From NCBI GenBank assembly GCA_039000515.1, contig JBCFYV010000100.1, forward strand, positions 56,667,433 through 56,731,432: a DNA stretch of 64,000 bases. The letters are read 5' to 3'. A program made the position numbers and the translations under genes. The notes beneath the pieces were generated by a model, which did no database searches, was not told the DNA's origin, and worked only from the letters and a program-made list of their open reading frames with translations. Of this stretch, positions 4,035 to 64,000 are shown one piece after another (within the stretch, counting starts at the first letter, position 1; each line of letters starts with the position of its first letter). This DNA comes from Timema cristinae (lineage: Eukaryota; Arthropoda; Insecta; Phasmatodea; Timematidae).

Positions 4035-4127
4035 CGAACTACTTGAAGATATGTCACACTCGGGATCCTAAACTCAACGTCTGCATCAAGGACTCCATCA
4101 GTCGACTCATCGTGGCCATGAAGAGTG
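4035..4127 (+). CDS. Gene 1 exon A: N-terminal Cys-pair exon
   Basis: Acceptor is ctgtttag and donor is gtatgg at 4128. The reading starts CG AAC TAC TTG and gives [16 protein letters not shown], then [15 protein letters not shown]. The two cysteines, nine residues apart, match the N-terminal disulfide of takeout/JHBP proteins. The exon is 93 nt (2+90+1). The matching exon in gene 2 is 90 nt. Confidence 0.85.
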
Positions 4128-5773
4128 GTATGGTATTACAACTAGACTTGTTTTAGAGAAGGGTTGGGAGAATCATTGGTGACGGTGTGGACCGCACACG
4201 GACTAAACGTCAAGCTCGTTTAGTCTAGTTCACCGGTGATGTGGAGGTCGAGATCATACTCTCATCCGGGTGTAGTGAGAGTAATTTTCCCTGAATGGTT
4301 TTCCACTCTCTATCTCCACGCAAATGAAGGTAAATTACGGTACATTCTAAACTTCTCATTCCAAGCATACTACATGGTATATATTTATGAATTAATAGGG
4401 GGAGGCTTCCTATGTCTACTTTAAAAGGGAGGTTACCTATGCCTACTAGAAGAGGGAGGCTACCTATGCCTACTAGAAGAGGGAGGTTACCTATGCCTTC
4501 TAGAAGAGGGAGGTTACCTATGCCTTTTATAAGAGGGAGGTTACCTATGCCTACTAGAAGAGGGAGGTTACCTATGCCTACTAGAAGAGGGAGGTTTCCT
4601 ATGCCTACTTTAAAAGGGAGGTTACCTATGCCTACTAGAAAAGGGATTGTTGCCTATACTTACCAGAAGGGGTTGTTGCCTATACCTACCAGAAGGGGTT
4701 GTTGACAATGCCTACCAGAAGGGGTTGTTGCCTATACCTACCAGAAGGGGTTGTTGCCTATACCTACCAGAAGAGGTTGTTGCCTATGCCTACCAGAAGG
4801 GTTTGTTTGTTGCCCATGTCTAATAGAAGATATGTTTGTGCGCAGGTTCCTCGGAGCTGTCTGTAGCTCCCATTGATCCTCTGGACATCCCCTTCATGGA
4901 GATGTACCAGGGCTCCATGAACGCTTCCCTCCAGTTGACCTTGAAAGACACCAGGATCACAGGACTCACCAACACGGAGATACTCACCGTCAAGTGAGTC
5001 TCAGTGGCAAGGGTTCCTACCGGTCCTTCTAGAGACAACACGAAGATTTATCAACCGTCGTGATGTGTTTTCCTCTTCGTCTTTTTATCTTACCTCTTCC
5101 TCTTACTTCCTGTTCAGGCTATAAGCATACATGATAATTATTATATAGGGCCAGGGATGAGGAAGGAAGTGTCTTAGAGGTAAAATACCCGCATTTGCGT
5201 GGAGGAAGAGTGGGGAACCATTCAGGATTAAAACCAACCTCAGTAGACCCGACTGGAATTAGAACCCCGGGCCTCTCGTCGTCAGCAGGTCAGTCCAACA
5301 CGAGAGTGATGCCTTAGACCATTTGACCAATGAAACGGTTAGTTTTATTATTATTATTATCATCATCATCATTATTATTATGATTCATTATATTCTAGTC
5401 TATTTAGTGGTGATGATAATGTTAGGGTTCGAATCCCAAATGGTGCTATAAGTGTTTTTTCCCTTGAATGATTTCCTACTTTATCTCCACACTAATGTGG
5501 CTACATATCGTATGAATTGAAACTTTCTCGTCCATGCTATGTTATTGTGAATATGTGTAAATCACGGATGGGTGGTAAGATGTGGTGCAAATAAAGGAAA
5601 CGTTCTATTGGGCTCCAGGGTGATGGAAGCTTTAGGTGGGGATGTAGGGAACGCGAGTTAAGGGGTGTATTTTTGTAGTTTTTATATAAAAACATTTGTT
5701 TGGTCAAAATAAATCAAAAGGTTCCCCAGTAGAAAATAGTGTTTAATTTTCTTCACATAGTGATATCAACAGC

Positions 5774-5823
<50 letters not shown>

Positions 5824-8800
5824 CATCATCATCACCGCGTCTTACTAACCACTTACGCTAATGTGTAATGGTAGGGTGATTGTGAGATGAAATGGAGGAC
5901 CTACAGTTTAACGTGAGATCCGAACCACGGTGGAGGCCTGGCATTCCCCACATTCACAAGATGTGATTAATACATGTCTTGTCAGAGGTGAAGGAAGGGT
6001 TTGGTAATCAGATAAATCTGTGCCGGGACCGAGGATTGAACCCCGGACCCCCAGAACAGAAGTCCAACATCTTACCCCTAGACCAACAGGTCACCGTCAA
6101 CCTTGTTGTTAAATATCTGTCCTGGAATTTAATGACAACTTTTTATGTTCATTTAAAAAGTTTCTCATCTAATGCCGCCATGCTCGTGACAGATAGTCAA
6201 CAACTGTTGATATCGCCATCTTACGTTCCCTTCACTTCTACCCTAAGGGCTCCTCTACGTTGAATACAATCATACTCACCTATTTATGATAACATATGCA
6301 CATATATTTACAAAACAATTATTTGTTTGGGAGACGTCTAGTACACTTCAAATTGTTCAAGATATTGTAAAATAACTCAAACACACAAAAATATGGCTTA
6401 ACATTCACACGTGAATAAAATTAATTCCCTTTGAACTTTTATGGTGGATTTTTAAAAAAGGAAATGGCTTTATTTGATTTCATCGCAGTCCAAATTGGTT
6501 CTAAAATTTTTCACCCAAAGGATCCTAGTTGTGTTCAATTTAACTGTTTCAAAGTAAATCTTTTATTTCTACACAAGAAAATCTGATTTAAAAACGATCT
6601 ATTCGCTTTACAATCTGTCAGAGATAACGTTATTTACTGTCACTGGTTGCAGGTGTAACGTGGTGGACAACAAGTTTGAGCTGAGCAGTAAGATCCCTAG
6701 TGACGTCACTGTAATATCTCTGTTTGCAGGTGTAACGTGGTGGACAACAAGTTTGAGCTGAGCAGTAAGATCCCCTAGTGACGTCACTGTAATATCTCTG
6801 GTTGCAGGTGTAACGTGGTGGACAACAAATTTGAGCTGAGCAGTAAGATCCCCTAGTGACGTCACTGTAATATCTCTGGTTGCAGGTGTAACGTGGTGGA
6901 CAACAAATTTGAGCTGAGCAGTAAGATCCCCTAGTGACGTCACTGTAATATCTCTGGTTGCAGGTGTAACGTGGTGGACAACAAGTTTGAGCTGAGCAGT
7001 AAGATCCCTAGTGACGTCACTGTAATATCTCTGGTTGCAGGTGTAACGTGGTGGACAACAAATTTGAGCTGAGCAGTAAGATCCCCTAGTGACGTCACTG
7101 TAATATCTCTGGTTGCAGGTGTAACGTGGTGGACAACAAATTTGAGCTGAGCAGTAAGATCCCCTAGTGACGTCACTGTAATATCTCTGGTTGCAGGTGT
7201 AACCTGGTGGACAACAAGTTTGAGCTGAGCAGTAAGATCCCCTAGTGACGTCACTGTAATATCTCTGGTTGCAGGTGTAACGTGGTGGACAACAAATTTG
7301 AGCTGAGCAGTAAGATCCCCTAGTGACGTCACTGTAATATCTCTGGTTGCAGGTGTAACGTGGTGGACAACAAGTTTGAGCTGAGCAGTAAGATCCCCTA
7401 GTGACGTCACTGTAATATCTCTGGTTGCAGGTGTAACGTGGTGGACAACAAATTTGAGCTGAGCAGTAAGATCCCCTAGTGACGTCACTGTAATATCTTT
7501 GGTTGCAGGTGTAACGTGGTGGACAACAAGTTTGAGCTGAGCAGTAAGATCCCCTACCTCGACATTCAAGGACAGTTTATCGCTGAGGGCAACGTCCTGA
7601 CCTTTCCCCTCTTCAGTTCAGGAGGGTTCTCAATCAACATGAGTAAGTACCTCGTGTTCTTCTTTTATATATGTATCTACTTTCTCTCTACCCCTCGGAG
7701 AGAGAAATACTGTGATCGTCAAAAATATTAAATTCAAGATTTTGATAAATGATGACGTTTCATGACCCCCTAAAACCAAAAAAGTGGTTTTCGTGGTTCT
7801 GTCCGTCTGTTTGTCTTTCTCGGCCTGGAGTCGAAATGATTGGCTAAAACTTGGTATTTAGGGTTATTATAATTTTTCCTTGAAGGGTTAATGGAATAAC
7901 ACATCTAGCCCTAAAATTAAGGTTAGTTTACTGAAGGGTATAAAGAGAAAAAAAATCTATGTTTTCAAAATAGGTTTTGATGATTTTGATTGAACTTTGT
8001 ATGTAAATGTTGTTTAAAATTATATGACGGGGAGGTCTAGGATGGAAGACCGGTTGGGCTTACTGAGGATGTTTTCTCAATATCCCTACACGCAAATCAG
8101 GGGACATTGCCTATAAACTCCACCTTACTAATCCCTACTCGGTTATCGTAATTAATATATATTTATTTTCCAATCTCAAGCTTCGTAACTTGACATTACC
8201 TCCATAACTGTTTCCAGGCTGTGCCCAGTTCTTTTTATTCAAGCCATGTATTCTCCACTGCTAGGCCTGTCGTAGTTTCATCTGTTTTATAATATAACTT
8301 AACACTAGGACAGGCACAACACCAGTCTCCCGGCCGTTAATTTATCACTGTAAAAGGGGGTAGCACACATTTCACCAATGATAAATTATTCGGTCATGCA
8401 GGGGATCGAACTAGGGACCCCTAGCTCAGTATATAGACACACTACCGACTGAGCTAAGATGTCGGATCAAGCTTCAAAATTATAAAAGAAAAGGTGACCT
8501 GGTGGTCTAGGGGTAAGGTGTCAGACTTCTGTGCTGGCGGCCGGGGTTCAATCCTCGGTCCCGGCACAGATTTATCTGATTACCAAACCCTTCCTTCACC
8601 TCTGACAAGACATCTTGTGAATGTGGGGAATGCCAGGCCGCCACCGTGGTTCGGATTCCACGTTAAACTGTAGGTCCTTCATTTCATCTCACAATCACCC
8701 TACCATTACACATTAGCGTGAGTGCGTATAACCCGAACGGGTAGTAAGACGCGGTGCTAAAAATAAATAAATAAATATAAAAGAAAAAAGTTCAAAGCTA

Positions 8801-11800
8801 AGCTATTTTTGTATAAATGTTTATAGTATTTATCTAGAAATATCTTACAGTTTCTATCGAGGGCAATCTATAGTCCAACTTCTTAGTTCAATCTGTAGTG
8901 TGTCTGTCTATCGAGCTAAGGGCCCCGGGATTTATTCTTAACATGGTCAAAAAAATACATCTTTGTTGAAATGTGAGTTTTCCCTTTCACAGTAATGAAT
9001 TAATGGTTGAGGGACGAGGTGCTGTGCTGTTATAAACTTACGTTAGCTTATAAGTCTTATGCTGACACAAACAAAAAAGTTTACAAAAATGCACGTTAAA
9101 TAACTCAAATAAATTAAAATTAAAATCTCTATGGCACTGGAGAATATTCGTTTAGGGACTAATCAAATGAGCCCCGTTTCTAAATGTGAACGCCTTCATC
9201 CCGTTGTTTTGTGGCCAGGTGACGCCACTGCTGTGTGGATCATATACTTCCACGACCTGGCGATCAACGGCTCGGAGTACATGTCCATTGACAAGTTTGA
9301 CCTGGACGTCATCCCATCGGAGATAACTTATGACTTTGGCCGAGTCCTGGATGGAGACAACAATTTGGGTCAGAGAAAGTTCATCCACAATTTACTGTAT
9401 CATTTTAATAAGTGTATATAATTTATTATTATATTATTACCCGCCTGGTGGCGTAGTTGGCTAACGCGCTTGTCGTGTTGAGCTCGACTGCTGAGGACGG
9501 GGAGATCGAGGTTCGAATCTCGGTCGTGTGAACTGGGGGTGGTGTTTCCTAAATGGTTTTCCACTCTCCTCCCACAAATGCGGGTTCACTTCCTCTAATT
9601 CAAACTTCCCAATTCCTAATCCAATAGCGTAATTAGTACTTAAAGCGTGTAACCCAACGGGTAGTAAGACGCGGTGCTAAATATTATTATTATATATTAT
9701 TATTATTATTATTATTAGCACCGCGTCTTACTACCCGTTCAGGTTATACGCACTTACGCTAATGTGTAATGGTAGGGTGATTGTGAGATGAAATGGAGGA
9801 CCTACAGTTTAACGTGGGATCCGAACACGGTGGAGAGCCTGGCATTCCCCACATTCACATGTGATATGTCTTGTCAGAGGTGAAGGAAGGGTTTGGCAAT
9901 CAGATAAATCTGTGTCAGGGACCGAGGATTGAACCCGGACCCCTAACACAAAAGTCTGACACCTTACTCCCAGACCGCCAGGTCACCCTATTTTATGATA
10001 AAAGAGAGATACAATCTCTGTGATGTACAGTTAAACTTGTTATTATTATTTTTCAATTTTTTGGCAGCAAGTCTATATGTATAGTTAGGCTTTAAATATT
10101 GTGTTGAAGTTACTTTTACAATTTGATGCCAAATGTTTGTCTGTAAGACGTGATATTTCGGGTGTTTGTTCAAACGGAAAAACAACGGTACACACTCTTG
10201 CTGACAAACATTGAACATTGGTGTGCAAATCCAACCACCTGACTTTGGATTTATAATACCACCAATTAAAAAAAATAATTCTAAATATCTTCAATTTATA
10301 TAACAATTCTCCTATCCCCGCTGGTTGAACTAGTTTATATTTAGAAAATTGAAAAATTACACCTGGACACGGGAATCGAACCCGGGACCTTTGCTTAGTA
10401 CGCCAATGCTCTACCCACTGAGCTATCCACACGTCCATAATAGGACTCTGCCTTAAAGTATGAGTGAAGAATGACCCTGGGCACGGAGACTAATCCTGAA
10501 TAGCTCAGTGGTTATAGCATTGGTGTACTAAACCAAAGGTCCTGAGTTCATTTCCCGTGTCCAGGTGTCAATTTTCAATTTTCAGAATATGATATCTAGA
10601 TGGAGTAATTCTCACTAAAAAGAATAAATACTAGCTTCGGCCGGCTATTTGATTAATAGTTTATATTTACTTGATTTATACTCAATTATTTTATTATTCA
10701 AGTAATTTTGTTATAAATATCATGCATAATATTTTCTTCTAGTTTATTACTTTGTTTTATTAAAATAGTTTAATATTTTACATCACCAATACTTTTTATC
10801 TGATAAATTTAATTGGTTCATGTGGGCCTACCCCGTACGATCCATTAACATAATTTTGATATATTTCTAATCTTCATTTATGTTTTATATCAGTTTTTAG
10901 TTTTATTATTTTCATATTTCTATTACAAAGTTTCCCCTTATTGTTAAACCTAATACATTTTCTTTTGTATAATTGTTTTAAATGTGTTTTATATTATTTT
11001 AGCTGAGCCATAATTTCCCCTTGATATGTTAAATATCTCAAATTTGTAAATTTAATAAATAAAAAATATGATCTATTTAGTATCAAAGTCTTGTCATATC
11101 TTACTTTACTTTAACAATAAAATGGTTTATACTGTACTCTTTGGATTAACAGATTAGGTTATGTTCATAATTTACCTCTGATAACAGATTATATACTGGA
11201 CATAGTTTTCAATTGGAAAATAACTACCATATATTATTTAAACCAACACTTTACAGGAATCCCCTTTTGGACAATCAATATTGATTGAAAGTCATTTTAA
11301 TATGGCAATTTAGAAATGTCTTAATTGATTTATTAATAATACAAAGTTAATCTAAAAAGTTATCAAAAGCTTCTAATCAAACTTCCAGATGGATTAATGT
11401 AAAATTTATCTTCATATTGCTAATTAAATGGGCTAAAATGTAAGTAACTACAATAGTTGAACAATTTTTACTATTCGCCATTGTGACAATATGAGTTTTT
11501 CATTTATCAAATAATAGGCTTTCTATGAAAATCAGACTGTAATTTGTAAATATAAAACTGATTTTGATATAAACAGTCTAAAGTTACCCTGTCCTATTGA
11601 TGTATATTTTTTATTTATAATTCTAATAAAAGCTGTCATTTATTAAGATTTTTGTTTTTATTTTCAGGTGAAGCGATGAATAAGTTTCTGAATGAGAACT
11701 CGCACGAAATATTCAAGGACATGAAACCTAAAATTATGGATGAACTTGGCGAAATATTCAATGAAATTGGCAATCAAGTGCTTAAAAACTATCCCAAAGA

Positions 11801-11819
11801 AATTCTTCTTCCTTATTGA
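4035..11819 (+). CDS. Takeout/JHBP-family secreted protein, gene 1 (5' exon not found)
   Basis: Spliced gene with five recognised coding exons: 4035-4127, 4846-4993, 7509-7642, 9219-9368 and 11668-11819. All junctions are AG/GT and the phases agree (1,2,1,1), giving about 225 residues. Takeout proteins are small secreted JHBP-fold proteins thought to carry hydrophobic ligands such as juvenile hormone or odorants in a tubular cavity. Evidence in sequence: an N-terminal [18 protein letters not shown] segment with the conserved Cys pair, a middle [19 protein letters not shown] segment, and a C-terminal [20 protein letters not shown] block ending in ILLPY and TGA. Family members run about 250 residues, so only a signal-peptide exon of roughly 20-25 codons is missing; it should end in phase 1 upstream of 4035, or lies outside the window. 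Polyadenylation signals follow the stop. The third exon is preceded by a tandem array that copies its own splice acceptor. Confidence 0.85.
4225..4365 (+). mobile_element. SINE-C remnant in gene 1 intron
   Basis: Diverged: gaggtcgagatcatactctc, then ggttttccactctctatctc. No tail is left. Confidence 0.4.
4398..4812 (+). repeat. 26-27-bp minisatellite before gene 1 exon B
   Basis: About nine copies of a gggaggttacctatgcctac unit of 27 bp, grading into about six copies of a ggttgttgcctatacctacc unit of 26 bp. The 27-bp part is open in one frame (RGRLPMPTR repeats), but I see no reason to call it coding. Confidence 0.9.
4846..4993 (+). CDS. Gene 1 exon B
   Basis: Acceptor gtgcgcag, donor gtgagt. 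It encodes [20 protein letters not shown] followed by [20 protein letters not shown] and TNTEILTVK. The 148-nt length equals gene 2 exon 3 exactly. The -PLDIP- and -LKDTRITGL- segments correspond to the family's first long strands. A 27-bp minisatellite ends only about 35 bp upstream of the acceptor. Confidence 0.85.
5115..5340 (-). mobile_element. SINE-C, diverged
   Basis: Minus-strand body (cccgcatttgcgtggaggaa), B box region (attagaaccccggg) and head (gccttagaccatttgaccaa). Confidence 0.65.
5400..5592 (+). mobile_element. SINE-C, diverged
   Basis: B box gggttcgaatccc, body, and a tail ggtaagatgtggtgcaaa. Confidence 0.6.
5600..6225. mobile_element. Foldback MITE-2, split by SINE-A
   Basis: The left arm (ctttaggtggggatgtaggg; tttaattttcttcacatagt; gatatcaacag) is before the SINE. 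The right inner arm (tttctcatctaatgccgcca; caactgttgatatc) is after it. The right outer end is lost. Confidence 0.75.
5834..6095 (-). mobile_element. SINE-A inserted in a foldback element
   Basis: Nearly full-length minus copy with an (ATT)n tail at 5774-5822. It splits the foldback element at 5600-6225. Confidence 0.88.
6640..7552 (+). repeat. 78-bp minisatellite that copies the exon C splice acceptor
   Basis: Twelve acceptors (AG at 6652, 6729, 6807, 6885, 6963, 7040, 7118, 7196, 7274, 7352, 7430, 7508), spaced 78 bp, or 77 bp in two units. Each unit holds ggttgcag, the first 47 bases of exon C, then TAGTGACGTCACTG and a spacer. Nine of the 11 upstream units end [19 protein letters not shown]. 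The two 77-bp units (after 6652 and 6963) shift frame and stop in the next unit. Confidence 0.95.
7509..7642 (+). CDS. Gene 1 exon C, intact copy after a decoy array
   Basis: Acceptor ggttgcag, donor gtaagt at 7643. The exon reads (K)[18 protein letters not shown], then [20 protein letters not shown] and GFSINM. It is 134 nt, the same as gene 2 exon 4. The first 47 bases and the acceptor are repeated 11 more times upstream, but only this copy continues past ATC CCC into TAC CTC GAC. Confidence 0.9.
7680..8025 (+). repeat. Interspersed repeat R1, 5' part only
   Basis: Shares gagaaatactgtgatcgtc, gacgtttcatgaccccctaa and ttaaggttagtttactgaag with the larger copies at 15690 and 39600. Class unknown. 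Confidence 0.7.
8035..8160 (+). mobile_element. SINE-C remnant
   Basis: Weak match to the C body (ctacacgcaaatcaggggac) and pre-tail. Confidence 0.4.
8212..8465 (-). mobile_element. SINE-D
   Basis: On the minus strand: head tagctcagtcggtagtgtgt, B box ggttcgatcccc, body with gatgaattaacgg, and a 3' end cctggaaacagttatgg without a TAA tail. Confidence 0.88.
8493..8775 (+). mobile_element. SINE-A in gene 1, upstream of exon D
   Basis: Full-length copy from ggtgacctggtggtctaggg to gacgcggtgctaa plus AAATA repeats. It pairs in inverted orientation with the copy at 9716-9988. Confidence 0.95.
9219..9368 (+). CDS. Gene 1 exon D
   Basis: Acceptor gtggccag; donor gtcaga at 9369, a weak donor. It encodes [20 protein letters not shown], then [20 protein letters not shown] and [11 protein letters not shown]. 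The closing DNNLG matches FNGDKALG and FNGDKSLG in genes 2 and 3. Inverted SINE-A copies flank the exon at 8493-8760 and 9716-9988. Confidence 0.85.
9440..9715 (+). mobile_element. SINE-B
   Basis: Head ggtggcgtagttggctaacg, B box ggttcgaatctc, body ccactctcctcccac, tail gtagtaagacgcggtgctaa. Full length (about 245 bp) with an (ATT)n tail shared with the next, opposite SINE. Confidence 0.92.
9716..9988 (-). mobile_element. SINE-A in gene 1, downstream of exon D
   Basis: Full-length minus copy that joins the SINE-B tail to tail. Confidence 0.92.
10325..10480 (-). mobile_element. SINE-E
   Basis: On the minus strand: tRNA-like head ggatagctcagtgggtagag, intact B box gggttcgattcccg, then tccaggtgtaatttttcaat. 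It is head-to-head with the next copy. Confidence 0.85.
10450..10640 (+). mobile_element. SINE-E with leader
   Basis: The leader gccttaaagtatgagtgaag precedes a tRNA-like head (tagctcagtggttatagcat), a degraded B box (gagttcatttcccg) and the body ending ctcactaaaa. Confidence 0.85.
10640..11660 (+). other. Gene 1 last intron, unassigned
   Basis: Very AT-rich intron sequence before exon E. I see no repeat family, ORF or RNA in it. Confidence 0.6.
11668..11819 (+). CDS. Gene 1 exon E: C-terminal exon with stop
   Basis: Strong acceptor tttattttcag. The exon encodes [20 protein letters not shown], then [20 protein letters not shown] and [10 protein letters not shown], then TGA at 11817-11819. 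This is the conserved C-terminal takeout block, paralogous to gene 2 DNMNVFLNDNWAEVFKEFG. Confidence 0.9.
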
Positions 11820-45700: not shown

Positions 45701-48700
45701 CGTGAGTCCCAGGTTCGATATCCGTCTTACACGCCTAGTTTTTTTTTAAAAACTATATTTGATTTAATTTTTTTCAGCACTAAGTTTTATTACCTATTCG
45801 GGTTGTACGCTTCTGTACTAATTACACTAAGGGTTAAGGATGAGGAAGGTTAAATTTAGAGGAGATATGCCCGCATTTTCTTAGAGAAATTGTGAGAAAC
45901 CATCGAGGAAAAAACACTGTCATCAGGAGTCTAGTTTATTGCGAGAGTAGCACTACCGAAGCTGATTTAAATTTTTATTGAAATATTGATGAAAAAAAGT
46001 TATTTTTTGTTTGACAAAAGTTTATAACTTTGTTTTTCAGCCCATTACCTCAAGTCCTGTAAGGTGGATGCCAACTTCGAGGCCTGTGCCTTAAAGAATG
46101 GTCAAGACTCAATAGCCACACTCGTAAAAGGTGAGTAAGGTCGATAGCCACACTCGTGAAAGGTGAGTAAGGTCGATAGCCACACTCGTAAAAGGTGAGT
46201 AAGGTCGATAGCCACACTCGTAAAAGGTGAGTAAGCTCAATAGCCACACTCGTAAAAGGTGAGTAAGGTCAATAGCCACACTCGTAAAAGGTGAGTAAGG
46301 TCAATATCCACACTCGTAAAAGGTGAGTAAGGTCAATAGCCACACTCGTAAAAGGTGAGTAAGCTCAATAGCCACACTCGTAAAAGGTGAGTAAGGTCAA
46401 TAGCCACACTCGTAAAAGGTGAGTAAGGTCAATAGCCACACTCGTAAAAGGTGAGTAAGGTCGATAGCCACACTCGTAAAAGGTGAGTAAGGTCGATAGC
46501 CACACTCGTAAAAGGTGAGTAAGGTCGATAGCCACACTCGTAAAAGGTGAGTAAGGTCGATAGCCACACTCGTAAAAGGTGAGTAAGGTCGATAGCCACA
46601 CTCATGAAAGGTGAGTAAGGTCGATAGCCACACTCGTAAAAGGTGAGTAAGGTCAATAGCCACACTCATGAAAGGTGAGTAAGGTGCCCGTTTCATTATG
46701 TTTACCCGAGACTAAACTACGCTCCAAGACAGGCCCGGATTTATATCCGTAGAGCCGCCGGGGTTGTAAGCAATTAGGGGCACCAACATTAAACAAGAAT
46801 TTTTCTTCTTGACATCATCATTTTTCTTTCTTTACATAATTCATTAATAGTTATATTAATAAAATCTCAATGTCAAATATATTATTTAAACAAGGAAATA
46901 TTATGATAACCGGGGCGCGGGTTTGAATTATATGAAAACGATTAAAAATGAACTCTAAAATGACCTGGAAATTTTAATAAAATGACTTCAAATTTTTTAA
47001 ATACCTAAAAAATGAACAAAAACTAGTAATGAATGCACATGAATAAATCAAAATGAACTTTAAAAATGTAAAATTCAATGGAAAGCCTTTAACACCTAAA
47101 CTCTATTATTCTATTACATATAATATAGATTTACAAATAACTCCTTCAGAAGTAATAGCTACCCCCTCCCAACACAACCCTCTCCAGTCTAGTTGCAGTC
47201 TCACCAGGAATGTGTAATACCTCCTTCAGAAGTAATAGTTACCCTCTCCCGACACAACCCTCTCCAGTCTAGTTGCAGTCTCAACAGGAGTGTGTAATAC
47301 TCCTTCAGAAGTAATAGTTACCCTCTCCCAACACAACCCTCTCCAGTCTAGTTGCAGTCTCACCAGGAATGTGTAATACCTCCTTCAGAAGTAATAGCTA
47401 CCCTCTCCCAACACAACCCTCTCCAGTCTAGTTACAGTCTCAACAGGAGTGTGTAATACCTCCTTCAGAAGTAATAGCAACCCTCTCCAGTCTAGTTGCA
47501 GTCTCACCAGGAATGTGTAATACCTCCTTCAGAAGTAATAGTTACCCTCTCCCAACACAACCCTCTCCAGTCTAGTTACAGTCTCAACAGGAGTGTGTAA
47601 TACCTCCTTCAGAAGTAATAGTTACCCTCTCCCAACACAACCCTCTCCAGTCTAGTTGCAGTCTCACCAGGAATGTGTAATACCTCCTTCAGAAGTAATA
47701 GCTACCCTCTCCCAACACAACCCTCTCCAGTCTAGTTACAGTCTCAACAGGAGTGTGTAATACCTCCTTCAGAAGTAATAGCTACCCCCTCCCAACACAA
47801 CCCTCTCCAGTCTAGTTACAGTCTCAACAGGAGTGTGTAATACCTCCTTCAGAAGTAATAGTTACCCTCTCCCAACACAACCCTCTCCAGTCTAGTTACA
47901 GTCTCAACAGGAGTGTGTAATACCTCCTTCAGAAGTAATAGCTACCCCCTCCCAACACAACCCTCTCCAGTCTGGTTACAGTCTCACCAGGAATGTGTAA
48001 TACCTCCTTCAGAAGTAATAGCTACTCCCTCCCAACACAACCCTCTCCAGTCTAGTTGCAGTCTCACCAGGAATGTGTAATATCTGCTTCAGAAGAAATA
48101 GCTACCCCCTCCTAACATAACCCTCTCCAGTCTAGTTACAGTCTCACCAGGAATGTGTAATACCTCCTTCAGAAGTAATAGCTACCCCCTCCCAACATAA
48201 CCCTCTCCAGTCTAGTTACAGTCTCACCAGGAATGTGTAATACCTCCTTCAGAAGTAATAGTTACCCTCTCCCAACACAACCCTCTCCAGTCTAGTTGCA
48301 GTCTCACCAGGAATGTGTAATACCTCCTTCAGAAGTAATAGCTACTCCCTCCCAACACAACCCTCTCCAGTCTAGTTGCAGTCTCAACAGGAGTGTGTAA
48401 TACCTCCTTCAGAAGTAATAGTTACCCTCTCCCAACACAACCCTCTCCAGTCTAGTTGCAGTCTCAACAGGAGTGTGTAATACCTCCTTCAGAAGTAATA
48501 GTTACCCTCTCCCAACACAACCCTCTCCAGTCTAGTTACAGTCTCACCAGGAATGTGTAATACCTCCTTCAGAAGTAATAGTTACCCTCTCCCAACACAA
48601 CCCTCTCCAGTCTAGTTGCAGTCTCAACAGGAGTGTGTAATACCTCCTTCAGAAGTAATAGCTACCCCTCCCAACACAACCCTCTCCAGTCTAGTTGCAG

Positions 48701-51700: not shown

Positions 51701-54700
51701 TCCTTCCTACAGTGTTCCTACTATTAGACCGATTCAACACTAGCGGTTTAAACGCGGCGGTTTTTGCTTCCACTTGTGTGCAGAATGGTTTAAAAATGTT
51801 GTATTGCGGGACTTATTTTGTTGGAGGAAATTCGCAAAAAAAAAAAAAAAAAAAAAAAAACCCTATTCAAAATAAACGTTGTTGGACTCACCCCACATTA
51901 TCGAACCGTCTCTCAACAGGACAGTTTCATATTATGTTTGTGAATCACAGAATGTACCCAAAGAAGTTATTTTTGTACTACATGATGTCTGTGGTTTCAT
52001 TTGACGAACTACTTGGTTTAGTGAATGAAAATATTGAAAAACGTGATACCATCTTGAGGAAGAGTATTATTCCTGCTGAAAGACTTGTTGTGACATTGAG
52101 GAACACACTGCCTGTTAACGCCTCCAGAGGTACAGTAGCCCCATGGCTTCTTTGATGCTGACTGTCAGAAGTGACAGCTGCTAAACACATGTTTTTGCAG
52201 ATCATATGATTCGGCGTAGGGCTACATAATTTGTTCTAGTAACTTTTCAAAACCGTCGGCTGTCAGTCAGCACCAAAGAAGACATAGGGCTGCTGTAAAC
52301 GCTGGTCTAGACGTAAACTTATTTTCTAACTTAATAACAAGGGTTTCATTCAAAGAAGCGGTTGCTAGCGTTTTAACAGCTAATTTAGAATAGGCCTTAA
52401 TGATGTATCTGTCCCGATAATTCCAGGGGACCCTCAGTACCGGATCCCTAAGTTGGAGCCTCTGGGACTGGACGAGATCAAGATCGATCAAGGATCAGGA
52501 CCTGTACAACTGTCCCTGACTGGGAAGGATGTCAAAGTGCACGGCCTTAGCCACGCGGTACTTAAGAGCATCAAGTAAGTTAAGGCGTCTTCACAACAAA
52601 CTTTTCATAAGAAACGGATGTTCCATTGTTAGTATTATTTTAACACCGCGTCTGCCTGCCTGTCCAGACTATACGCTTGTTAAATAATTACACCAATGTG
52701 TTAGGAATGAGGAAGGCGGTGTTTAGAGGAAGTGTACTCATATTCACGTGGATGGAGAGAGGTGAACTATTTAGGAAAATAAACACCTCAGATTATCCGA
52801 TAGTAGTGACTCGAACCTCCAGCTTCCTATCCCCGGATATAGCCCCTACATCTTAGCCCACGCACCTACCTATATAAGTGTTTGCCACAGTTTATTTAAA
52901 GCCATCCCACTTAACCGGCCAGTTCTGCCATAATTTATCCAACACTAGCCCTCCTAAGCCTTAGCTCTTAGATTATGTCGTTTATTAATCAAAGTGTCAA
53001 AGATGTGTCCACTCGGCTTTACATGAAGTGTAGCGGTCTTACTTTGAAATATTCCACCATGGTATAGATTGTAGGACCAGATCATGGTGTAATCCATCAA
53101 GGTAATGTTACCTTTCAGTTTAAACGGATTATATCAATATTTATTTATCTATGCGTGTTTGGGCTACATCCCTCGTAGCCCAGTAGTGGAAATATTATCC
53201 AGTACTGATGTATAGTTAGTTGTCCAGGGGACGTACTAATGTACTAATAATAGTACAACCTTTACATGGAGGCTCTTTACATGTCCCGGTGAGATGAGGT
53301 GATGGTGATAGTGAGGCTGGAGGTTTGGAGCCAATGGAAATTTTAAACCTAACTTAAACCTAACTAACCAAACCTTGGTGACCGTTATGGTAACTCCCCT
53401 TTCAGGAAAAAAATCCCACGGTACCAGCCGGGAAACAAACTCGAGACTTCTAGGCTCGTAGCCAGATGCGCTGACCACTACACCACGGGGCCGGTTATTG
53501 TAACGATTAAAATACTAATCACCCGCTTCGGTGGCCGCATGGTCTAACGCGCTAATATCGTGTTATACTAGATTACCGATGACGAGGTTCGAATATAGGT
53601 AGAGTGAACTGAGGGTGTTTTTTTTTTCAAAATAATTTTCCACTTTTCCTTCACTCAAACGCAGGTATATTTCCTCTAAATATAACCTACCTAAAGCCAC
53701 TAGTGTGAGTATTATATAAAGGTATGTGGAGTAAGACGTGGTGCTAATAGAAAGTAGTGTCTCTGAACGAAAGTGTGTTTGTTTCAGGTTCGACAGCGAC
53801 AGTAAGTTGTTAGATATTGATTTTACGATAGACAAAGTGATCGTGTTGGCCAAGTACGACATATCGGGCAAAGTCCTCGTCTTGCCGATCACCGGTACAG
53901 GAGACTTGAACATCACGCTAGGTAAGCTCCCATTGGCTTCTTCGCTTCTTCCAATCATCCTACCATTACACATTAGCGTAAGTGCGTATAACCCGAACGG
54001 GTAGTAAGACGCGATAATGATAATATAATAATAATAATATAATAATAATAATAATAATAATGGTTTCAAGCGAAAAGTCGCAAATAATCTGCGTGTGGAA
54101 GCTCATTCTTGAGATTCAGAGGGGTGAGACGTATGTGTGTGTGTGTGTGTGTGTGTGTGCGTGCGCGAGCGTGGTACGTAATTCTTGTGTATTTTAGCTC
54201 TAGTTTTTTTTCCTTTTTTTAAATACTTTTTTGTGTGTTTTATACATATATATATTATTTTGTTAAACTTCAGTTTAATTGTATTGGTTAAGTGTAAGAA
54301 AAGGCAGTAGCCTTAACTTCGCCATTAAAGTCGATTATTATTAATAATCAGATACAGTGCCTGCCTAAGCTAGGTATTTAAAAATAAACATTCTTATACA
54401 AAATAAATAAAATATTACTTCAGTTGATACCTGCCAGTTTGATCCGACACCTTAGCTCAGTCGGTAGCAGGTCTATATACTGAGATAAGCTTCCCGGGTT
54501 CTATTCCCGCCATGGTCGAAAAATATATTATTGGTGAAATTTGGGTTTACACTTTCACAATGATGAATTAACGGCCGGGGGACTGGATGTTGTGCCTGTC
54601 TTAGTCTTAAGTTATATTATAAGACGTATGAAGCCACGACAGGCCTAGCAAGATGGTAGTGGAGAATATATGTCTTGGATAAAAAACTGACCCAGGATGG

Positions 54701-57700
54701 AAACAGTGATTTATTTTATCACACGTGGTAATCTCAGCATCACCTATTAAATATTTGTAACTAGCATGAGGGTGTTAGAACAGAAACTACTTAATTAATC
54801 TAATCTCAAAATAAATTACTAAGTGAACCCAAAATACTATTTATTTGTCGCTACTCAACCCCAACCCACAAAGCTGAAAGTAGCTGACAAATTTGCTCGC
54901 GGGGTTGGGCTGAGGATCGACAATAGCGTAGTAAAATGGGATTAGGGAAAATGGCGCCTCCACAGAAAAAAAAAGGGGGAAATGGCACCCTCCTATCAAT
55001 CATCACACCATTAGGGGAAAAGAGCACCCCACACTGTTTGACACACTTACAAAAACAAGTACACTCCAGGACCTAACAAAGTGTTTGAGGAGTCTAACCT
55101 AGATTCAAAAATGGAGTAAAAGGTCGTAAATAATTAGTTTGGTAACTTCAATTTATACGTTCACATCAAATTCTTACAGATACAGAGTATTCTTTATTTC
55201 ATATAAAAACCTAACCTAACCTTACCTAACCTAAGAAAATATAGCCTAACCAACAGGCAAAGAGACGGGTTCAATGAATCGATGTACTTTGACCTCCTCA
55301 AGACCTCATGATGCGTGATGAGTCGATTTGAAATCCCCCCCCCCCCTCCTAAACAAAAGAATGCGATGAACGATCCACGCCGTTGAAAATGGTAAGGTCG
55401 TGAGGAAGTGATAAAAGTGCGCCCACAATGCCTTGTTAAAATTATTTACGTGAGACAGACAAGGTCGTGTGGGTGCACTTTTCCCACCTATTAGTGTGAT
55501 GATTCATGGGAGGTGCAGTTTTGCCACCTTTTAGTGTGATGATTCATGGGAGGCGCAGTTTTGCCACCTTTTGTGTGATGATTCATGGGAGGTGCACTTT
55601 TCCATAAAATGTTATTAAGGTTGAACATAGAAATAGTTGTGTTTTTTTTGTGTGTGTTTTCTAAAATGTCCTTCCTTTGTTTCAGACGACTCTCTGGAGT
55701 TTACAAGGTCAAACTTGACCTCAAGAAGAACGAGAAGGATGGAAAGGATTACGCACAAATCAATAATAGCGACTTTAAGTTTAGCACCAAGAGGGCTTAT
55801 TTCCAACTCGACAATCTCTTCAACGGGGACAAAGCCTTGGGTAGGTGCAAAACCTTTTTACGGTCTAGGCGAGTCTCAAAGTAAACACGTTCAACTAGTG
55901 TCGGTTAGGGACTTGGCCTAAATGTGACGTCACGGCAAGTCAAGTCAGGATGTCACATGTTAAATGAAGTTTTATTTGAATAATTTTAAAGACGAAACAT
56001 TGAAATAGAAGCCTTGGTGCTTAGATAATTTTAAAAATATTCTTACATTGTCACATAATTATTTCGTTGATCTTGAATCAGTTCTTTTGGATTTTTTTTA
56101 ACCGACTACATTCAGCCCTCAACATACAACCATACATACATACATACATACATACATACATACATACATACATACATACATACATACATACATACATACA
56201 TACATACATACATACATACATACATACTACTACATGCATACATAAATACATACATAAATACATACATAATACATACATACATACATACATACATACATAC
56301 ATACATACATACATACATACATACATACATACATACATACATACATACTACATACATACACACACACACACACACATACACACTCATCCTCAACATGCCC
56401 AAACCACGTAAAACTCTTCTATCACACTGTCCTGTTGTATTCCCTTTCAACCAGCACTCCTTCAGCTCCCATTCATCACTGACTCAGACTATACAGTTTA
56501 TACTTGTTATTTCCAGTGGCAGCCTTCCTGCCAGATTGAAGATTAAAAAAGTCCTTGGGGGGCGTTTGTCCATTTAGAATAGTAAACAATCAAAACATAG
56601 CTTTGAAATGTAAGTGAACGCGGTCCAAACGTAGAGGCTTATCGTGCTAACCTCCATCATCTTGTCCTCTGTTCACGTTTTATACATTGGTGTGTAAGTG
56701 TTATGGTTCTTGTGAGTGCTTGAAGTGTGTCAAGTTTAATATACATTGGTGTGTAAGTGTTATGGTTCTTGTGAGTGCTTGAAGTGTGTCAAGTTTAATA
56801 TACATTGGTGTGTAAGTGTTATGGTTCTTGTTAGTGCTTGAAGTGTGTCAAGTTTAATATACATTGGTGTGTAAGTGTTATGGTTCTTGTTAGTGCTTGA
56901 AGTGTGTCAAGTTTAATATACATTGGGTGTAAGTGTTATGGTTCTGTGAGTGCTTGAAGTGTGTCAAGTTTAATATACATTGGTGTGTGTTATGTTCTTG
57001 TGAGTGCTTGAAGTGTGTCAAGTTTAATATACATTGGTGTGTAAGTGTTATGGTTCTTGTGAGTGCTTGAAGTGTGTCAAGTTTAATATACATTGGTGTG
57101 TGTTATGGTTCTTGTGAGTGCTTGAAGTGTGTCAAGTTTAATATACATTGGTGTGTAAGTGTTATGGTTCTTGTGAGTGCTTGAAGTGTGTCAAGTTTAA
57201 TATACATTGGTGTGTAAGTGTTATGGTTCTTGTGAGTGCTTGAAGTGTGTCAAGTTTAATATACATAGCACGCTTCTCGAGATAGCTTCCACTCTACCAA
57301 CAAGACAACTTCGTTGATTTAATCATTTTCCTAAAACGCGCGTTTAATTCTCAGAACCAAAGACGATTGATTGAACTATGTGTGCGCACCACGTCCTACT
57401 GCCCATTCAGTCTATACAGATATTTCTAACTAATGCGGTAGGGAAGAGAAATATATACTGTAGAAGAAATGTAACCACATTTGCTTGTAGATAGAGGATC
57501 AGAAACAACTTAGGGAAAAAAAACATCTAATAACATTCTACCGGGATTAAAACCCCAACCTTCTTAATGAAAATGTCCACGGATGAGGTCGAGATATCAA
57601 TATCACCTGGTCAAAAGAAGGTCGGGGTTTTAATTCCAGCTGGCTGCTGGGAGTTAACTTTCCCTTAATGTTTTTCTTTCCCCCTATCCAGACAAATGCG

Positions 57701-62299: not shown

Positions 62300-62457
62300 T
62301 CATTCAGCGATGGGGAATACGTCCTCGTAAGGAACGAGCCCCAGGAACTGGTCCATGAGAATGTCCAGCGTCTTCTTGAAGGCGTCCCCCACCACGGGTC
62401 CCAGCTCCTTGAGGACGTCTCGCCAGTTCTCGTTCATGAACCTGTTCATGTTGTCCC
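62300..62457 (-). CDS. Gene 3 last exon
   Basis: Acceptor ttgttccag on the minus strand. It encodes GDNMNRFMNENWRDVLKELG, then PVVGDAFKKTLDILMDQFLG and LVPYEDVFPIAE, then TGA. It is 158 nt against 161 nt in gene 2. Confidence 0.9.
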
Positions 62458-64000
62458 CTGGAACAATCAGCCGGGAGACCCGGATTCGATTATCGGAAAT
62501 GTATCACTAATTAAAATATGTGTTTACCCCCTTAAATTGATAAATTAACGGTCGGTAGACTAGATGTTGTGCTTGTCCTAGTCTTAAGATAGATCATAAG
62601 CATATGAAGCTACGACATGTCTAGCAAGCCAGTAGTGGAAAATATATGGCTTGTATAGAAAAACTGACCATAAGCTGGAAACAGTAATGGATGTAAAAAA
62701 AACTGGAAATATTTTCCTTTTTAACTTTTAGAAAATATCAATTTTTTTACAAAAAATGTTAAAAGCTCAATATTAAAGATATGATTTAAATAAGGAAACA
62801 TTTTCTCACACAACATTAGATTTCTTTATTGCAAGAATGTTATCAGAAATTTCACTTGTTTTTTAGTTAATCTTGTTAAGGACAGAAAATAATGTCAAGA
62901 GTGTGAAAAAAAAAATATTAAAAAAAATGTAATGTCAAAATAATGAATGACGTTTATTTTTTATATACAAATATAACCAAAATATAACCAATTTTTAGTT
63001 ACCTGGGGCTTTTGTCTCTATCGTCTTCCCTTAAGCCCGGTCCTGTGTAATGCACCCTCATTTGTTTGGAGAGAGGACGATAAAACTACAAGTACGTGTA
63101 AATCCAATCTCTTGGTGCGGCTGGTCGGTATTCAAACCCTGACCTTGGTGTCACTGTCTCTGTCGGCGCGACCACCGATTCACTCGGTAATACCGACAGA
63201 GGGGGTTAGGATATAATCTCACCAAGACTCTTGTCGCCGTTGAACAAGTTGGTCATCTCGACGTGGAAAGATTCCGGCTCGAATTCGAAAGTGCTCCCCC
63301 CAAGTTTTATGTAGTCCTTCCCATCGGACTTGCGATTCTCCAAGTCGTGATGAAACACATACACGCAATGGACGTTTGCTGAAACAACACACAAATAATA
63401 TCCGTTACACTTTACTCTCAAGGATCATTGCAACTTTGGAGGAGACGCGCATTAGATTCAATTTGATCCTCAGTTACTTACTTAATCTATGGCACTAGGA
63501 ACGCTATAGTCCATTGCCGCACCTAACAAAAGAACGCAATCTATATCTATCATGAGCTAGTTATATCTAGTCAACCTCATTATACGCTATCTCTATCATG
63601 AGATAGTCCTATCCAGTCCACCTCATTATACCCTATCTCTATCATGAGCTAGCTTAGTTTATTATACTAAGTCCACCATCCATTACTAGCCTTAGCCTCT
63701 TCCTCTCTTGAACTAGTCGAGTGTGACAGGTTTGATGTAACCGGCTACTCACTCATATTCAAGATCAGGTCTCCGTTACCGACGATGGGTAGAACTAGAA
63801 TCTTTCCCGAGATGTTGTATTTCGCCTGCATGTTGATCGGGGAGTTGAGGTCGAACTCCATGCGTCGCTCGGAAATGTTGACCCTGTCAACATGTAGGGG
63901 TTTATACAGACTGTGCTTCAAACTGAACAGTTCTTATAACTGAACTAGTCGAACTAGTTCACCTTCTTGGAGTGATTAACGAGGTGACGCGACAGTAATC
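62300..64000 (-). CDS. Takeout/JHBP-family secreted protein, gene 3 (3' part, cut by window edge)
   Basis: Minus-strand gene with exons, in transcript order, 64000-63963 (partial), 63883-63753, 63378-63223 and 62457-62300. The phases match genes 1 and 2. Segments seen: VNISERRMEFDLNSPIN, MQAKYNISGKILVLPIVGNG, CVYVFHHDLENRKSDGKDY, SFHVEMTNLFNGDKSLG and the C-terminal DNMNRFMNENWRDVLKELG with VPYEDVFPIAE and TGA. It faces gene 2 tail-to-tail. Its introns here are short (about 80 to 770 bp), unlike those of gene 2. The signal peptide and the Cys-pair exon lie beyond the window. Confidence 0.88.
62463..62700 (+). mobile_element. SINE-D, 5' part degraded, in gene 3 intron
   Basis: B-box-like cccggattcgattatcgg, then aaattaacggtcggtagact and gctggaaacagtaatgg. 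It starts about 6 bp from the gene 3 last-exon boundary. Confidence 0.8.
63010..63195 (-). mobile_element. SINE-C-like remnant
   Basis: ggtattcaaaccctgacctt (B box) and gcgaccaccgattcactcgg (head); body diverged. Confidence 0.55.
63223..63378 (-). CDS. Gene 3 penultimate exon
   Basis: Acceptor gtgttgtttcag, donor gtgaga. It reads TNVHCVYVFHHDLENRKSDG, then KDYIKLGGSTFEFEPESFHV and EMTNLFNGDKSLG. It is 156 nt, phase 1 in and phase 1 out. Confidence 0.88.
63470..63668 (-). mobile_element. LINE 3' end with the same 46-bp repeats
   Basis: On the minus strand, about three units of gggtataatgaggtggactg, gataggactatctcatgata, then tgccatagattaagtaag. It matches the end of the LINE at 43990-45040. 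It lies in a gene 3 intron. Confidence 0.75.
63753..63883 (-). CDS. Gene 3 exon homologous to gene 2 exon 4
   Basis: Acceptor atgttgacag, donor gtgagt. It encodes VNISERRMEFDLNSPINMQA, then KYNISGKILVLPIVGNGDLI and LNM. The 131-nt length is one codon less than in the paralogs. Confidence 0.85.
63963..64000 (-). CDS. Gene 3 exon, 3' end only
   Basis: Phase-compatible reading DYCRVTSLITPRR before a GTGAAC donor. It aligns loosely with [17 protein letters not shown] of gene 1. The rest is outside the window. Confidence 0.5.

What the first reader, a model, noticed from the sequence alone, without database searches (positions are those of the whole stretch)
6640..7552. Takeout gene 1: a splice acceptor and exon start multiplied into twelve tandem copies
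A 78-bp minisatellite spans an intron-exon junction. Each unit has a usable acceptor (ggttgcag), the first 47 bases of exon C, then TAG TGA in frame. Only the last copy leads into the full exon. Nine of the 11 others would give [19 protein letters not shown]; the two 77-bp units shift frame and also stop. Each acceptor overlaps a donor-like CAG|GTGTAA, and each exon copy holds GTAAGA, so zero-length or 35-nt microexons are also conceivable. Either the spliceosome always picks the last of twelve near-identical acceptors, or the array sets the dose of productive mRNA and length changes tune it.
Basis: partly seen in the sequence, partly recalled or inferred. Interest (0 to 1): 0.93.

Follow-up and report, generated by a model that had tools for sequence, protein, structure and literature searches.

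The report
Minisatellites sitting on splice sites
In a stick-insect gene the start of one exon, with its splice site, has been copied twelve times in a row so that only the last copy can make the full protein, and similar repeat arrays lie on other splice sites of the same gene family, a natural experiment on how cells pick the right splice site.

Summary
Window 6643-7556 is a 78-bp array (12 acceptor-plus-exon-start copies) on the intron 3/exon 4 boundary of an intact six-exon takeout (JHBP) gene of a stick insect, by its matches a Timema. Only copy 12 leads to the full exon; 11 of 11 upstream copies give early stops. Exon 4 is 134 nt, as are 18 of 20 homologous exons of other takeout genes read here, so copy 12 is the ancestral exon start. 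On this family's own matrix acceptors 2-12 are near-equal and acceptor 1 scores higher, so a choice of copy 12 must come from context; the internal donors are weak.

It is not a singleton: 8 of 79 readable takeout junctions (5 acceptors, 3 donors) lie in arrays, against 16 expected by random placement. Best reading: arrays over junctions are tolerated because the splice-site copy next to the exon body is used, and leakage mostly gives stop-containing mRNA. No RNA, allele-length or other-gene-family data were available; a dose-setting role is not excluded.

The parts
4035..4127 (+). takeout gene 1, exon 2 (exon 1 lies just outside the window, L009:9640-9757, about 0.24 kb before window base 1)
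   Evidence: tblastn with T. bartmani P0001 and GT/AG boundaries
4846..4993 (+). exon 3 (148 nt), donor CAA|GTGAGT, the 5' partner of the array acceptors
6643..7556 (+). 78-bp minisatellite, 11.7 copies, over the intron 3/exon 4 junction
6653..7508 (+). 11 complete units, each 47-48 nt like the exon start + about 30 nt of intron tail ending in an acceptor; units 1 and 5 are 77 bp; every forward frame of the consensus unit contains stops
6699..7489 (.). 11 copies of the 12-bp palindrome AGTGACGTCACT (contains TGACGTCA), one per unit, just upstream of acceptors 2-12
7509..7642 (+). exon 4 proper (134 nt), the only array copy that gives the full protein; donor TGA|GTAAGT at 7643
9219..9368 (+). 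exon 5
11668..11819 (+). exon 6, ends in the stop codon

Best explanation
A minisatellite has grown across the 3' splice site of exon 4 of a takeout gene with an intact reading frame. It is tolerated because splicing normally uses the copy that is joined to the exon body and lies 134 nt from the strong 7642 donor (exon definition); the other 11 acceptors stay in the intron. Occasional use of them makes mRNA with an early stop, expected to be degraded or useless. The same process has put arrays on at least seven other takeout junctions in this genome, on donors as well as acceptors. Shown: the anatomy, the intact frame, the family exon length, the acceptor scores, the stops, the recurrence in this gene family, the depletion in exons. 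Inferred: the exon-definition choice, the decay of leaked mRNA, and near-neutrality.
For: Intact 264-aa ORF, 243 of 264 aligned positions identical to T. bartmani P0001. The homologous exon is 134 nt in 18 of 20 exons of other takeout genes (140 and 131 nt in the other two, whose script tried a GT at +134 first; with the best-scoring donor and no such preference it is 134 nt in 12 of 20). So acceptor 12 + donor 7642 is the family's exon; any upstream acceptor would make an exon of 212-990 nt. Good e4 donor (71st percentile). 8 of 79 readable junctions lie in arrays; 2000 random circular shifts of the arrays within the same sequences give 16.0 +/- 3.7, P(null <= 8) = 0.014; arrays cover 167 of 4942 bases of exons with both ends known (3.4%) against 20% of all 114,536 bases: junction arrays look selected against but tolerated, exon interiors far less. 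Leak products: early stops for 11 of 11 upstream copies in gene 1 and for 41 of 44 extra copies tested in the other seven arrays: L033B 18/18 (one further, outlying AG not tested), L035A 4/4, L035B 1/3, L033A 3/4, L055C 1/1, L037B 8/8, L039E 6/6 (five, the sixth). Sequence around is minisatellite-rich: 19.5% of the window, 9.4% of 200 kb sampled on the same contig. Two-copy precedent: human CBS 844ins68, where the downstream of two duplicated sites is used (PMC2630376, passages; PMC7490669, passages).
Against: No RNA was available. On the family's own matrix acceptor 1 scores higher (74th percentile) than acceptor 12 (50th) and is transcribed first, so a first-come choice would favour the wrong copy. 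A high early-stop rate among leak products is expected by chance and is no proof of selection. The depletion test is modest (P about 0.01), rests on 79 junctions of one gene family, and no other gene family could be used as control (15 requests, all busy). In two of the eight arrays (L035A, L039E) the copied units share no exact exon prefix with the real exon, so they multiply the acceptor but hardly any exon. 3 of the 44 extra copies give no early stop but an in-frame insertion.
Confidence: 0.66

Rival explanations
1. Rheostat: the 12 acceptors compete, a fraction of transcripts goes to early-stop mRNA, and array length sets the dose of takeout protein.
For: Acceptors 2-12 are near-equal and about as good as the median real one of this family (43rd-50th percentile), acceptor 1 better still; 11 of 11 upstream ones are unproductive. 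The human OCT1 8-bp donor duplication gives aberrant splicing in 38-52% of minigene transcripts but only 0.3-0.6% aberrant transcript in liver, with reduced expression (PMC8137991, abstract). The human CBS 31-bp VNTR is linked to reduced CBS activity (Lievers 2001, title only, seen in a reference list).
Against: Exon definition disfavours 212-990-nt exons (general knowledge); no RNA, protein or length data; no sign that length is regulated.
Confidence: 0.15
2. Recursive or microexon splicing: array units are removed stepwise as 78-nt GT..AG introns, or spliced as 35-nt microexons.
For: Every unit starts GT and ends AG; AG|GT is present at all 12 copies. In potato RdRp a duplicated intron-exon boundary activated a cryptic GTAAG in the exon copy and made a new intron (PMC4974935, abstract and results section). 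On a recalled general matrix both internal donors fell inside the range of this gene's own donors.
Against: On the family's own matrix CAG|GTGTAA is at the 6th percentile and GCA|GTAAGA at the 14th; adjacent-unit microexon introns would be 43 nt; of 2048 microexon combinations only the one without microexons is productive.
Confidence: 0.05
3. Artefact or decayed gene: the array is misassembled, or the gene is no longer used.
For: Array length from one assembly only; exon 5 donor GTCAGA is poor (lowest of five on a recalled matrix); exon 4 is missing from the database models of T. genevievae (P0004, P0005) and T. douglasi (P0003).
Against: 914-bp array with ordered unit variants (5 variable columns) in a 63-Mb contig; full ORF with 243 of 264 positions identical to T. 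bartmani; homologous exons of other genes end at the matching place.
Confidence: 0.08
4. Regulatory array: the 11 TGACGTCA (CRE-like, name recalled) palindromes are the selected feature, as an intronic enhancer or as RNA stems that mask acceptors 2-12.
For: One perfect 12-bp palindrome per unit; 11 of the 16 TGACGTCA in the window are here. RNA folding pairs most palindromes with those of other units.
Against: Units are nearly identical, so any motif in a unit would be multiplied; the fold was not compared with shuffles; the stretch before acceptor 12 is paired too.
Confidence: 0.04

Closest known systems
[quoted passage not shown]
   Same: Copy of intron end + exon start duplicated in tandem; the downstream site is strongly favoured (PMC2630376, passages, which speaks of donor sites; PMC7490669, passages, which speaks of the 3' splice site).
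   Different: 2 copies against 12; human polymorphism; RNA known there, not here.
Human junction-spanning VNTRs: CBS 31-bp VNTR c.1444_1467+7(16_21) and FAM20C
   Same: Minisatellite over an exon-intron boundary; CBS with 16-21 copies (PMC2630376, passages); FAM20C VNTR said to affect alternative splicing (PMC5941971, one passage).
   Different: Single human loci; by its name the CBS one is on a donor side; here several junctions of one gene family in one genome.
Intron gain by tandem duplication across an intron-exon boundary (potato RdRp; Drosophila tandem-duplication introns)
   Same: Duplicated 3' splice site + exon start with a cryptic GTAAG in the exon copy (PMC4974935, results section); a premature stop in all 18 tandem-duplication intron sequences (PMC2891723, passages).
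   Different: There the new intron is spliced and kept; here a 12-copy array, and splicing at the internal donors is unknown and looks weak.
Recursive splicing / zero-length exon sites (recalled)
   Same: AG|GT juxtaposed at each unit boundary.
   Different: The donor half is weak (6th percentile).

Membership tests
Takeout/JHBP family (PF06585) | JHBP domain over the protein | tested here: met
   E 2.1e-47, 161.7 bits, cut-off 29.2 (exons 3-6)
Takeout/JHBP family (PF06585) | intact ORF and family exon structure | tested here: met
   264 aa; exon 4 = 134 nt as in 18 of 20 exons of other genes
Splice-junction VNTR (CBS 31-bp, FAM20C type) | tandem array covers an exon-intron boundary | tested here: met
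Splice-junction VNTR (CBS 31-bp, FAM20C type) | copy number varies between individuals | not testable with these tools
   one assembly only; one search found one locus
Splice-junction VNTR (CBS 31-bp, FAM20C type) | effect on splicing or expression | not testable with these tools
   no RNA data
844ins68-type acceptor duplication | downstream copy used, upstream copies excluded | not testable with these tools
   only indirect: exon length and stops
Intron gain by tandem duplication | a donor inside the copied exon is used with the next acceptor | tested here: inconclusive
   GTAAGA present 12 of 12, 14th percentile; use not testable
Recursive splice sites | strong acceptor directly followed by a strong donor | tested here: not met
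   acceptors good, donor CAG|GTGTAA at the 6th percentile of 35 donors

The most novel reading that the evidence does not exclude
Splice-junction minisatellites are a recurrent, copy-number-variable class of splicing modifier in Timema: arrays of 2 to about 20 near-identical splice sites on junctions of takeout genes set the productive mRNA fraction and let expression of these genes drift or adapt by unequal exchange, without any coding change.
Probability: 0.13. Interest if true: 0.87.

Novelty: new variant of a known kind. Interest (0 to 1): 0.64.

Why it matters
Near-equal splice sites in series are a clean natural test of a long-standing question: does the spliceosome choose by site strength, by order of transcription, or by distance to the exon's other end? 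Here strength is nearly equalised by nature (12 acceptors in gene 1; 19, 7, 5 and 4 in other arrays; 9, 5 and 2 donors), and array lengths may well differ between individuals (untested). It also suggests that, in this gene family, arrays run over splice junctions at about half the rate of random placement while being kept largely out of exon interiors, and that gene predictors may lose such exons.

Tried and rejected
Zero-length exons and microexons: scored and enumerated, disfavoured. A recalled metazoan splice matrix put both internal donors inside the range of this gene's own donors; I replaced it by a matrix from 42 acceptors and 35 donors of this family, which separates them. The recalled matrix was still used to pick boundaries. 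Evidence in other Timema: exon 4 is absent from the T. genevievae and T. douglasi models; P0005 ends at TVK, which in the DNA of this window is where the donor reads as TGA. This fits an array or an assembly gap there and cannot tell which; two further protein searches found no other model and none with the truncated peptide. RNA folding of the array was run without shuffle control and is not used as evidence for the best reading. Origin of the intron part of the unit: it aligns imperfectly with the intron tail before copy 1; order of events not resolved. The long antisense ORF through the array follows from the 78-bp (26-codon) period. Papers: (Timema, takeout) listed one unrelated paper; one search listed nothing on this array; some searches looked for precedents, and those used are cited; only open-licence papers are held. 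A control gene family (PF00118) was asked for 15 times and never answered, so whether the pattern is genome-wide is untested. Leaving out gene 1 exon 4, which led me here, one search gives 7 junctions against 15.7 expected (1.2% of shifts as low).

Full report
What is there. TRF finds one 78-bp array at 6643-7556 with 11.7 copies and 98% matches. Cutting it at the acceptor gives 12 exon starts, 6653 to 7509, spaced 77 or 78 bases; 11 full units precede the last copy. The 11 units differ in only five columns: a G/A at a silent lysine site shared by several units, a one-base deletion in units 1 and 5, and three private changes. A search of the 1.29-Gb assembly with the unit finds 12 hits, all here (that search skips very common words).

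The gene. Proteins found by similarity (5 with E <= 0.001) are from stick insects: Timema bartmani P0001 over the full query, Bacillus rossius P0002 at 56%, and partial models from T. douglasi and T. genevievae. The protein is a JHBP/takeout protein (PF06585, E 2.1e-47). With exon 1 taken from the 10-kb stretch just before the window (exon 1 ends about 0.24 kb before window base 1), six exons give an unbroken 264-aa protein, 243 of 264 aligned positions identical to P0001. A protein search of the assembly gives 5 matches: four exons of gene 1 and one weak hit elsewhere.

Which copy is the exon. The JHBP profile matches at 83 places in the genome (counts there are lower bounds). I could read 40 of these 83, in 23 genes by my own grouping by position, plus three gene 1 exons that the list did not hold. 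The exon homologous to exon 4 is 134 nt in 18 of 20 exons of other genes (140 and 131 nt in the other two). That script tried a GT at +134 first; with simply the best-scoring donor the length is 134 nt in 12 of 20. Gene 1's copy 12 to donor 7642 is also 134 nt. So the last copy is the ancestral exon and the 11 others are additions.

What the other copies would do. Spliced to exon 3 and read to donor 7642, acceptors 2-4 and 6-11 give a 135-aa protein ending SKIP, acceptors 1 and 5 one of 155 aa; only acceptor 12 gives 264 aa. All three forward frames of the consensus unit hold stops. Of 2048 combinations of 35-nt microexons the productive one contains none. Skipping exon 4 also stops at once, after TVK.

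Splice-site strength. With a matrix made from 42 acceptors and 35 donors of the same gene family, excluding gene 1 exon 4, acceptors 3-11 are identical (48th percentile), 12 is at the 50th, 2 at the 43rd and 1 at the 74th. The true exon 4 donor is at the 71st percentile, the internal GCA|GTAAGA at the 14th (4% of all GTs in the window score as well) and CAG|GTGTAA at the 6th (31% score as well). Acceptor strength therefore cannot explain a choice of copy 12; if anything it favours copy 1. The distance to the 7642 donor can: exon lengths would be 134 nt for copy 12 and 212 to 990 nt for copies 11 to 1.

Not a singleton. Arrays covering a junction (at least 3 nt on the exon side and 10 nt on the intron side) were found at 8 of 79 takeout junctions (43 acceptors, 36 donors), in 5 of the 23 genes. 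Besides gene 1 they are: C100:56280711-56281405, 36-bp units with 19 acceptor copies CAG|GTA[TC]CC at exon B; C100:56281454-56281646, about 42-bp units with 5 donor copies at exon A of the same gene, 1-3 exon bases copied; C100:56278100-56278464 (cut by the locus end), a 174-bp repeat with 35-bp sub-units and 2 donor copies at exon C of that gene (same gene by position, strand and reading frame), 52 exon bases copied; C100:62586527-62586627, 27-bp, 4 acceptor copies, 5 exon bases copied, where the 100-nt intron consists of the repeat; C100:62586718-62586884, 33-bp, 5 acceptor copies, in the same gene, no exact exon prefix copied; C12:81268802-81269320, 75-bp, 7 acceptor-like copies, partly diverged, no exact exon prefix; C100:56759999-56760369, 40-bp, 9 donor copies with 15-20 exon bases each. 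The gene with three such arrays reads through exons A-E without a stop when the copies next to the exon bodies are used, starting downstream of a stop in the first codons of my exon A, whose own start is doubtful.

Is that many or few? Arrays (period 10 or more, 2 or more copies) cover 20% of the 114,536 bases examined. Shifting them at random within each sequence (2000 times) spans 16.0 +/- 3.7 junctions; 8 or fewer occur in 1.4% of shifts. Without gene 1 exon 4 it is 7 against 15.7 (1.2%). In exons with both ends known arrays cover 167 of 4942 bases, 3.4%. So junctions look partly protected and exon interiors strongly. On the same contig 20 stretches of 10 kb have 9.4% minisatellite; this window has 19.5%.

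Mechanism. I think the exon-body-proximal copy wins by exon definition, so growth of an array away from the exon body is nearly invisible. Leakage mostly gives early stops: 11 of 11 upstream copies in gene 1 and 41 of 44 extra copies tested in the seven other arrays; the three exceptions insert 9, 18 or 14 residues in frame. One outlying AG upstream of exon B in L033 was not tested. Such a stop rate is about what chance would give and is not evidence for selection; it does mean that nonsense-mediated decay can hide leakage, as argued for new Drosophila introns (PMC2809761, abstract). For the last-exon array (L039) stops would not trigger junction-dependent decay (general knowledge).

Known relatives. 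[quoted passage not shown] CBS also carries a 31-bp VNTR of 16-21 copies over an exon-intron boundary (passages), and FAM20C has a junction VNTR said to affect splicing (one passage). In potato RdRp a duplicated junction created a new intron with a GTAAG donor from the exon copy (results section). So each ingredient is known. What I have not seen in the searches made is a 12-copy acceptor array, or several junction arrays in one gene family.

Limits. No RNA, no second haplotype, no other Timema DNA; one gene family, and 40 of its 83 listed exon matches; the control family did not complete; the depletion P value is modest and depends on repeat-finder thresholds; junction positions were assigned by profile edges and splice scores, with L032 E, L039 E and the search range of L062 C set by hand and the acceptor of L033 exon A doubtful.

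Noticed in passing
window 46112-46685: A 32-bp array of about 18 copies whose consensus unit holds a donor-like AAAAG|GTGAGTAAG on the + strand; no gene assigned to it.
   Followed up: no
window 6699-7489: Eleven perfect TGACGTCA (CRE-like, name recalled) palindromes, one per unit, 11 of the 16 in the window.
   Followed up: partly
window 4400-4807: A 27-bp array in intron 2 of the same gene ends 38 nt before exon 3; arrays also end 17 nt before the exon in L054 and 32 nt before it in L056.
   Followed up: partly
L035 (C100:62584856-62588038): A takeout intron of 100 nt that consists of a 27-bp minisatellite, each unit ending in CTGCAG|GTATC; two upstream acceptors would add 9 or 18 residues in frame.
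   Followed up: partly
window 52427-58870 (+) and 62300-64000 (-): Two further takeout genes; their homologous exons are 134 and 131 nt, and none of their junctions that I examined lies in an array (exon D of the second was not examined).
   Followed up: partly
L009:2299-3407 and 6959-7761: Repeated peptides in the ORF list suggest more minisatellites upstream of gene 1; TRF was not run there.
   Followed up: no
window 9369-9374: Exon 5 donor is GTCAGA, a poor donor, although the reading frame requires it.
   Followed up: partly
window 8497-8760 and other places: A dispersed repeat (gtgacctggtggtctagggg ... cgcggtgcta) is seen several times on both strands in the sequence read; it looks like a SINE-type element (inferred).
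   Followed up: no
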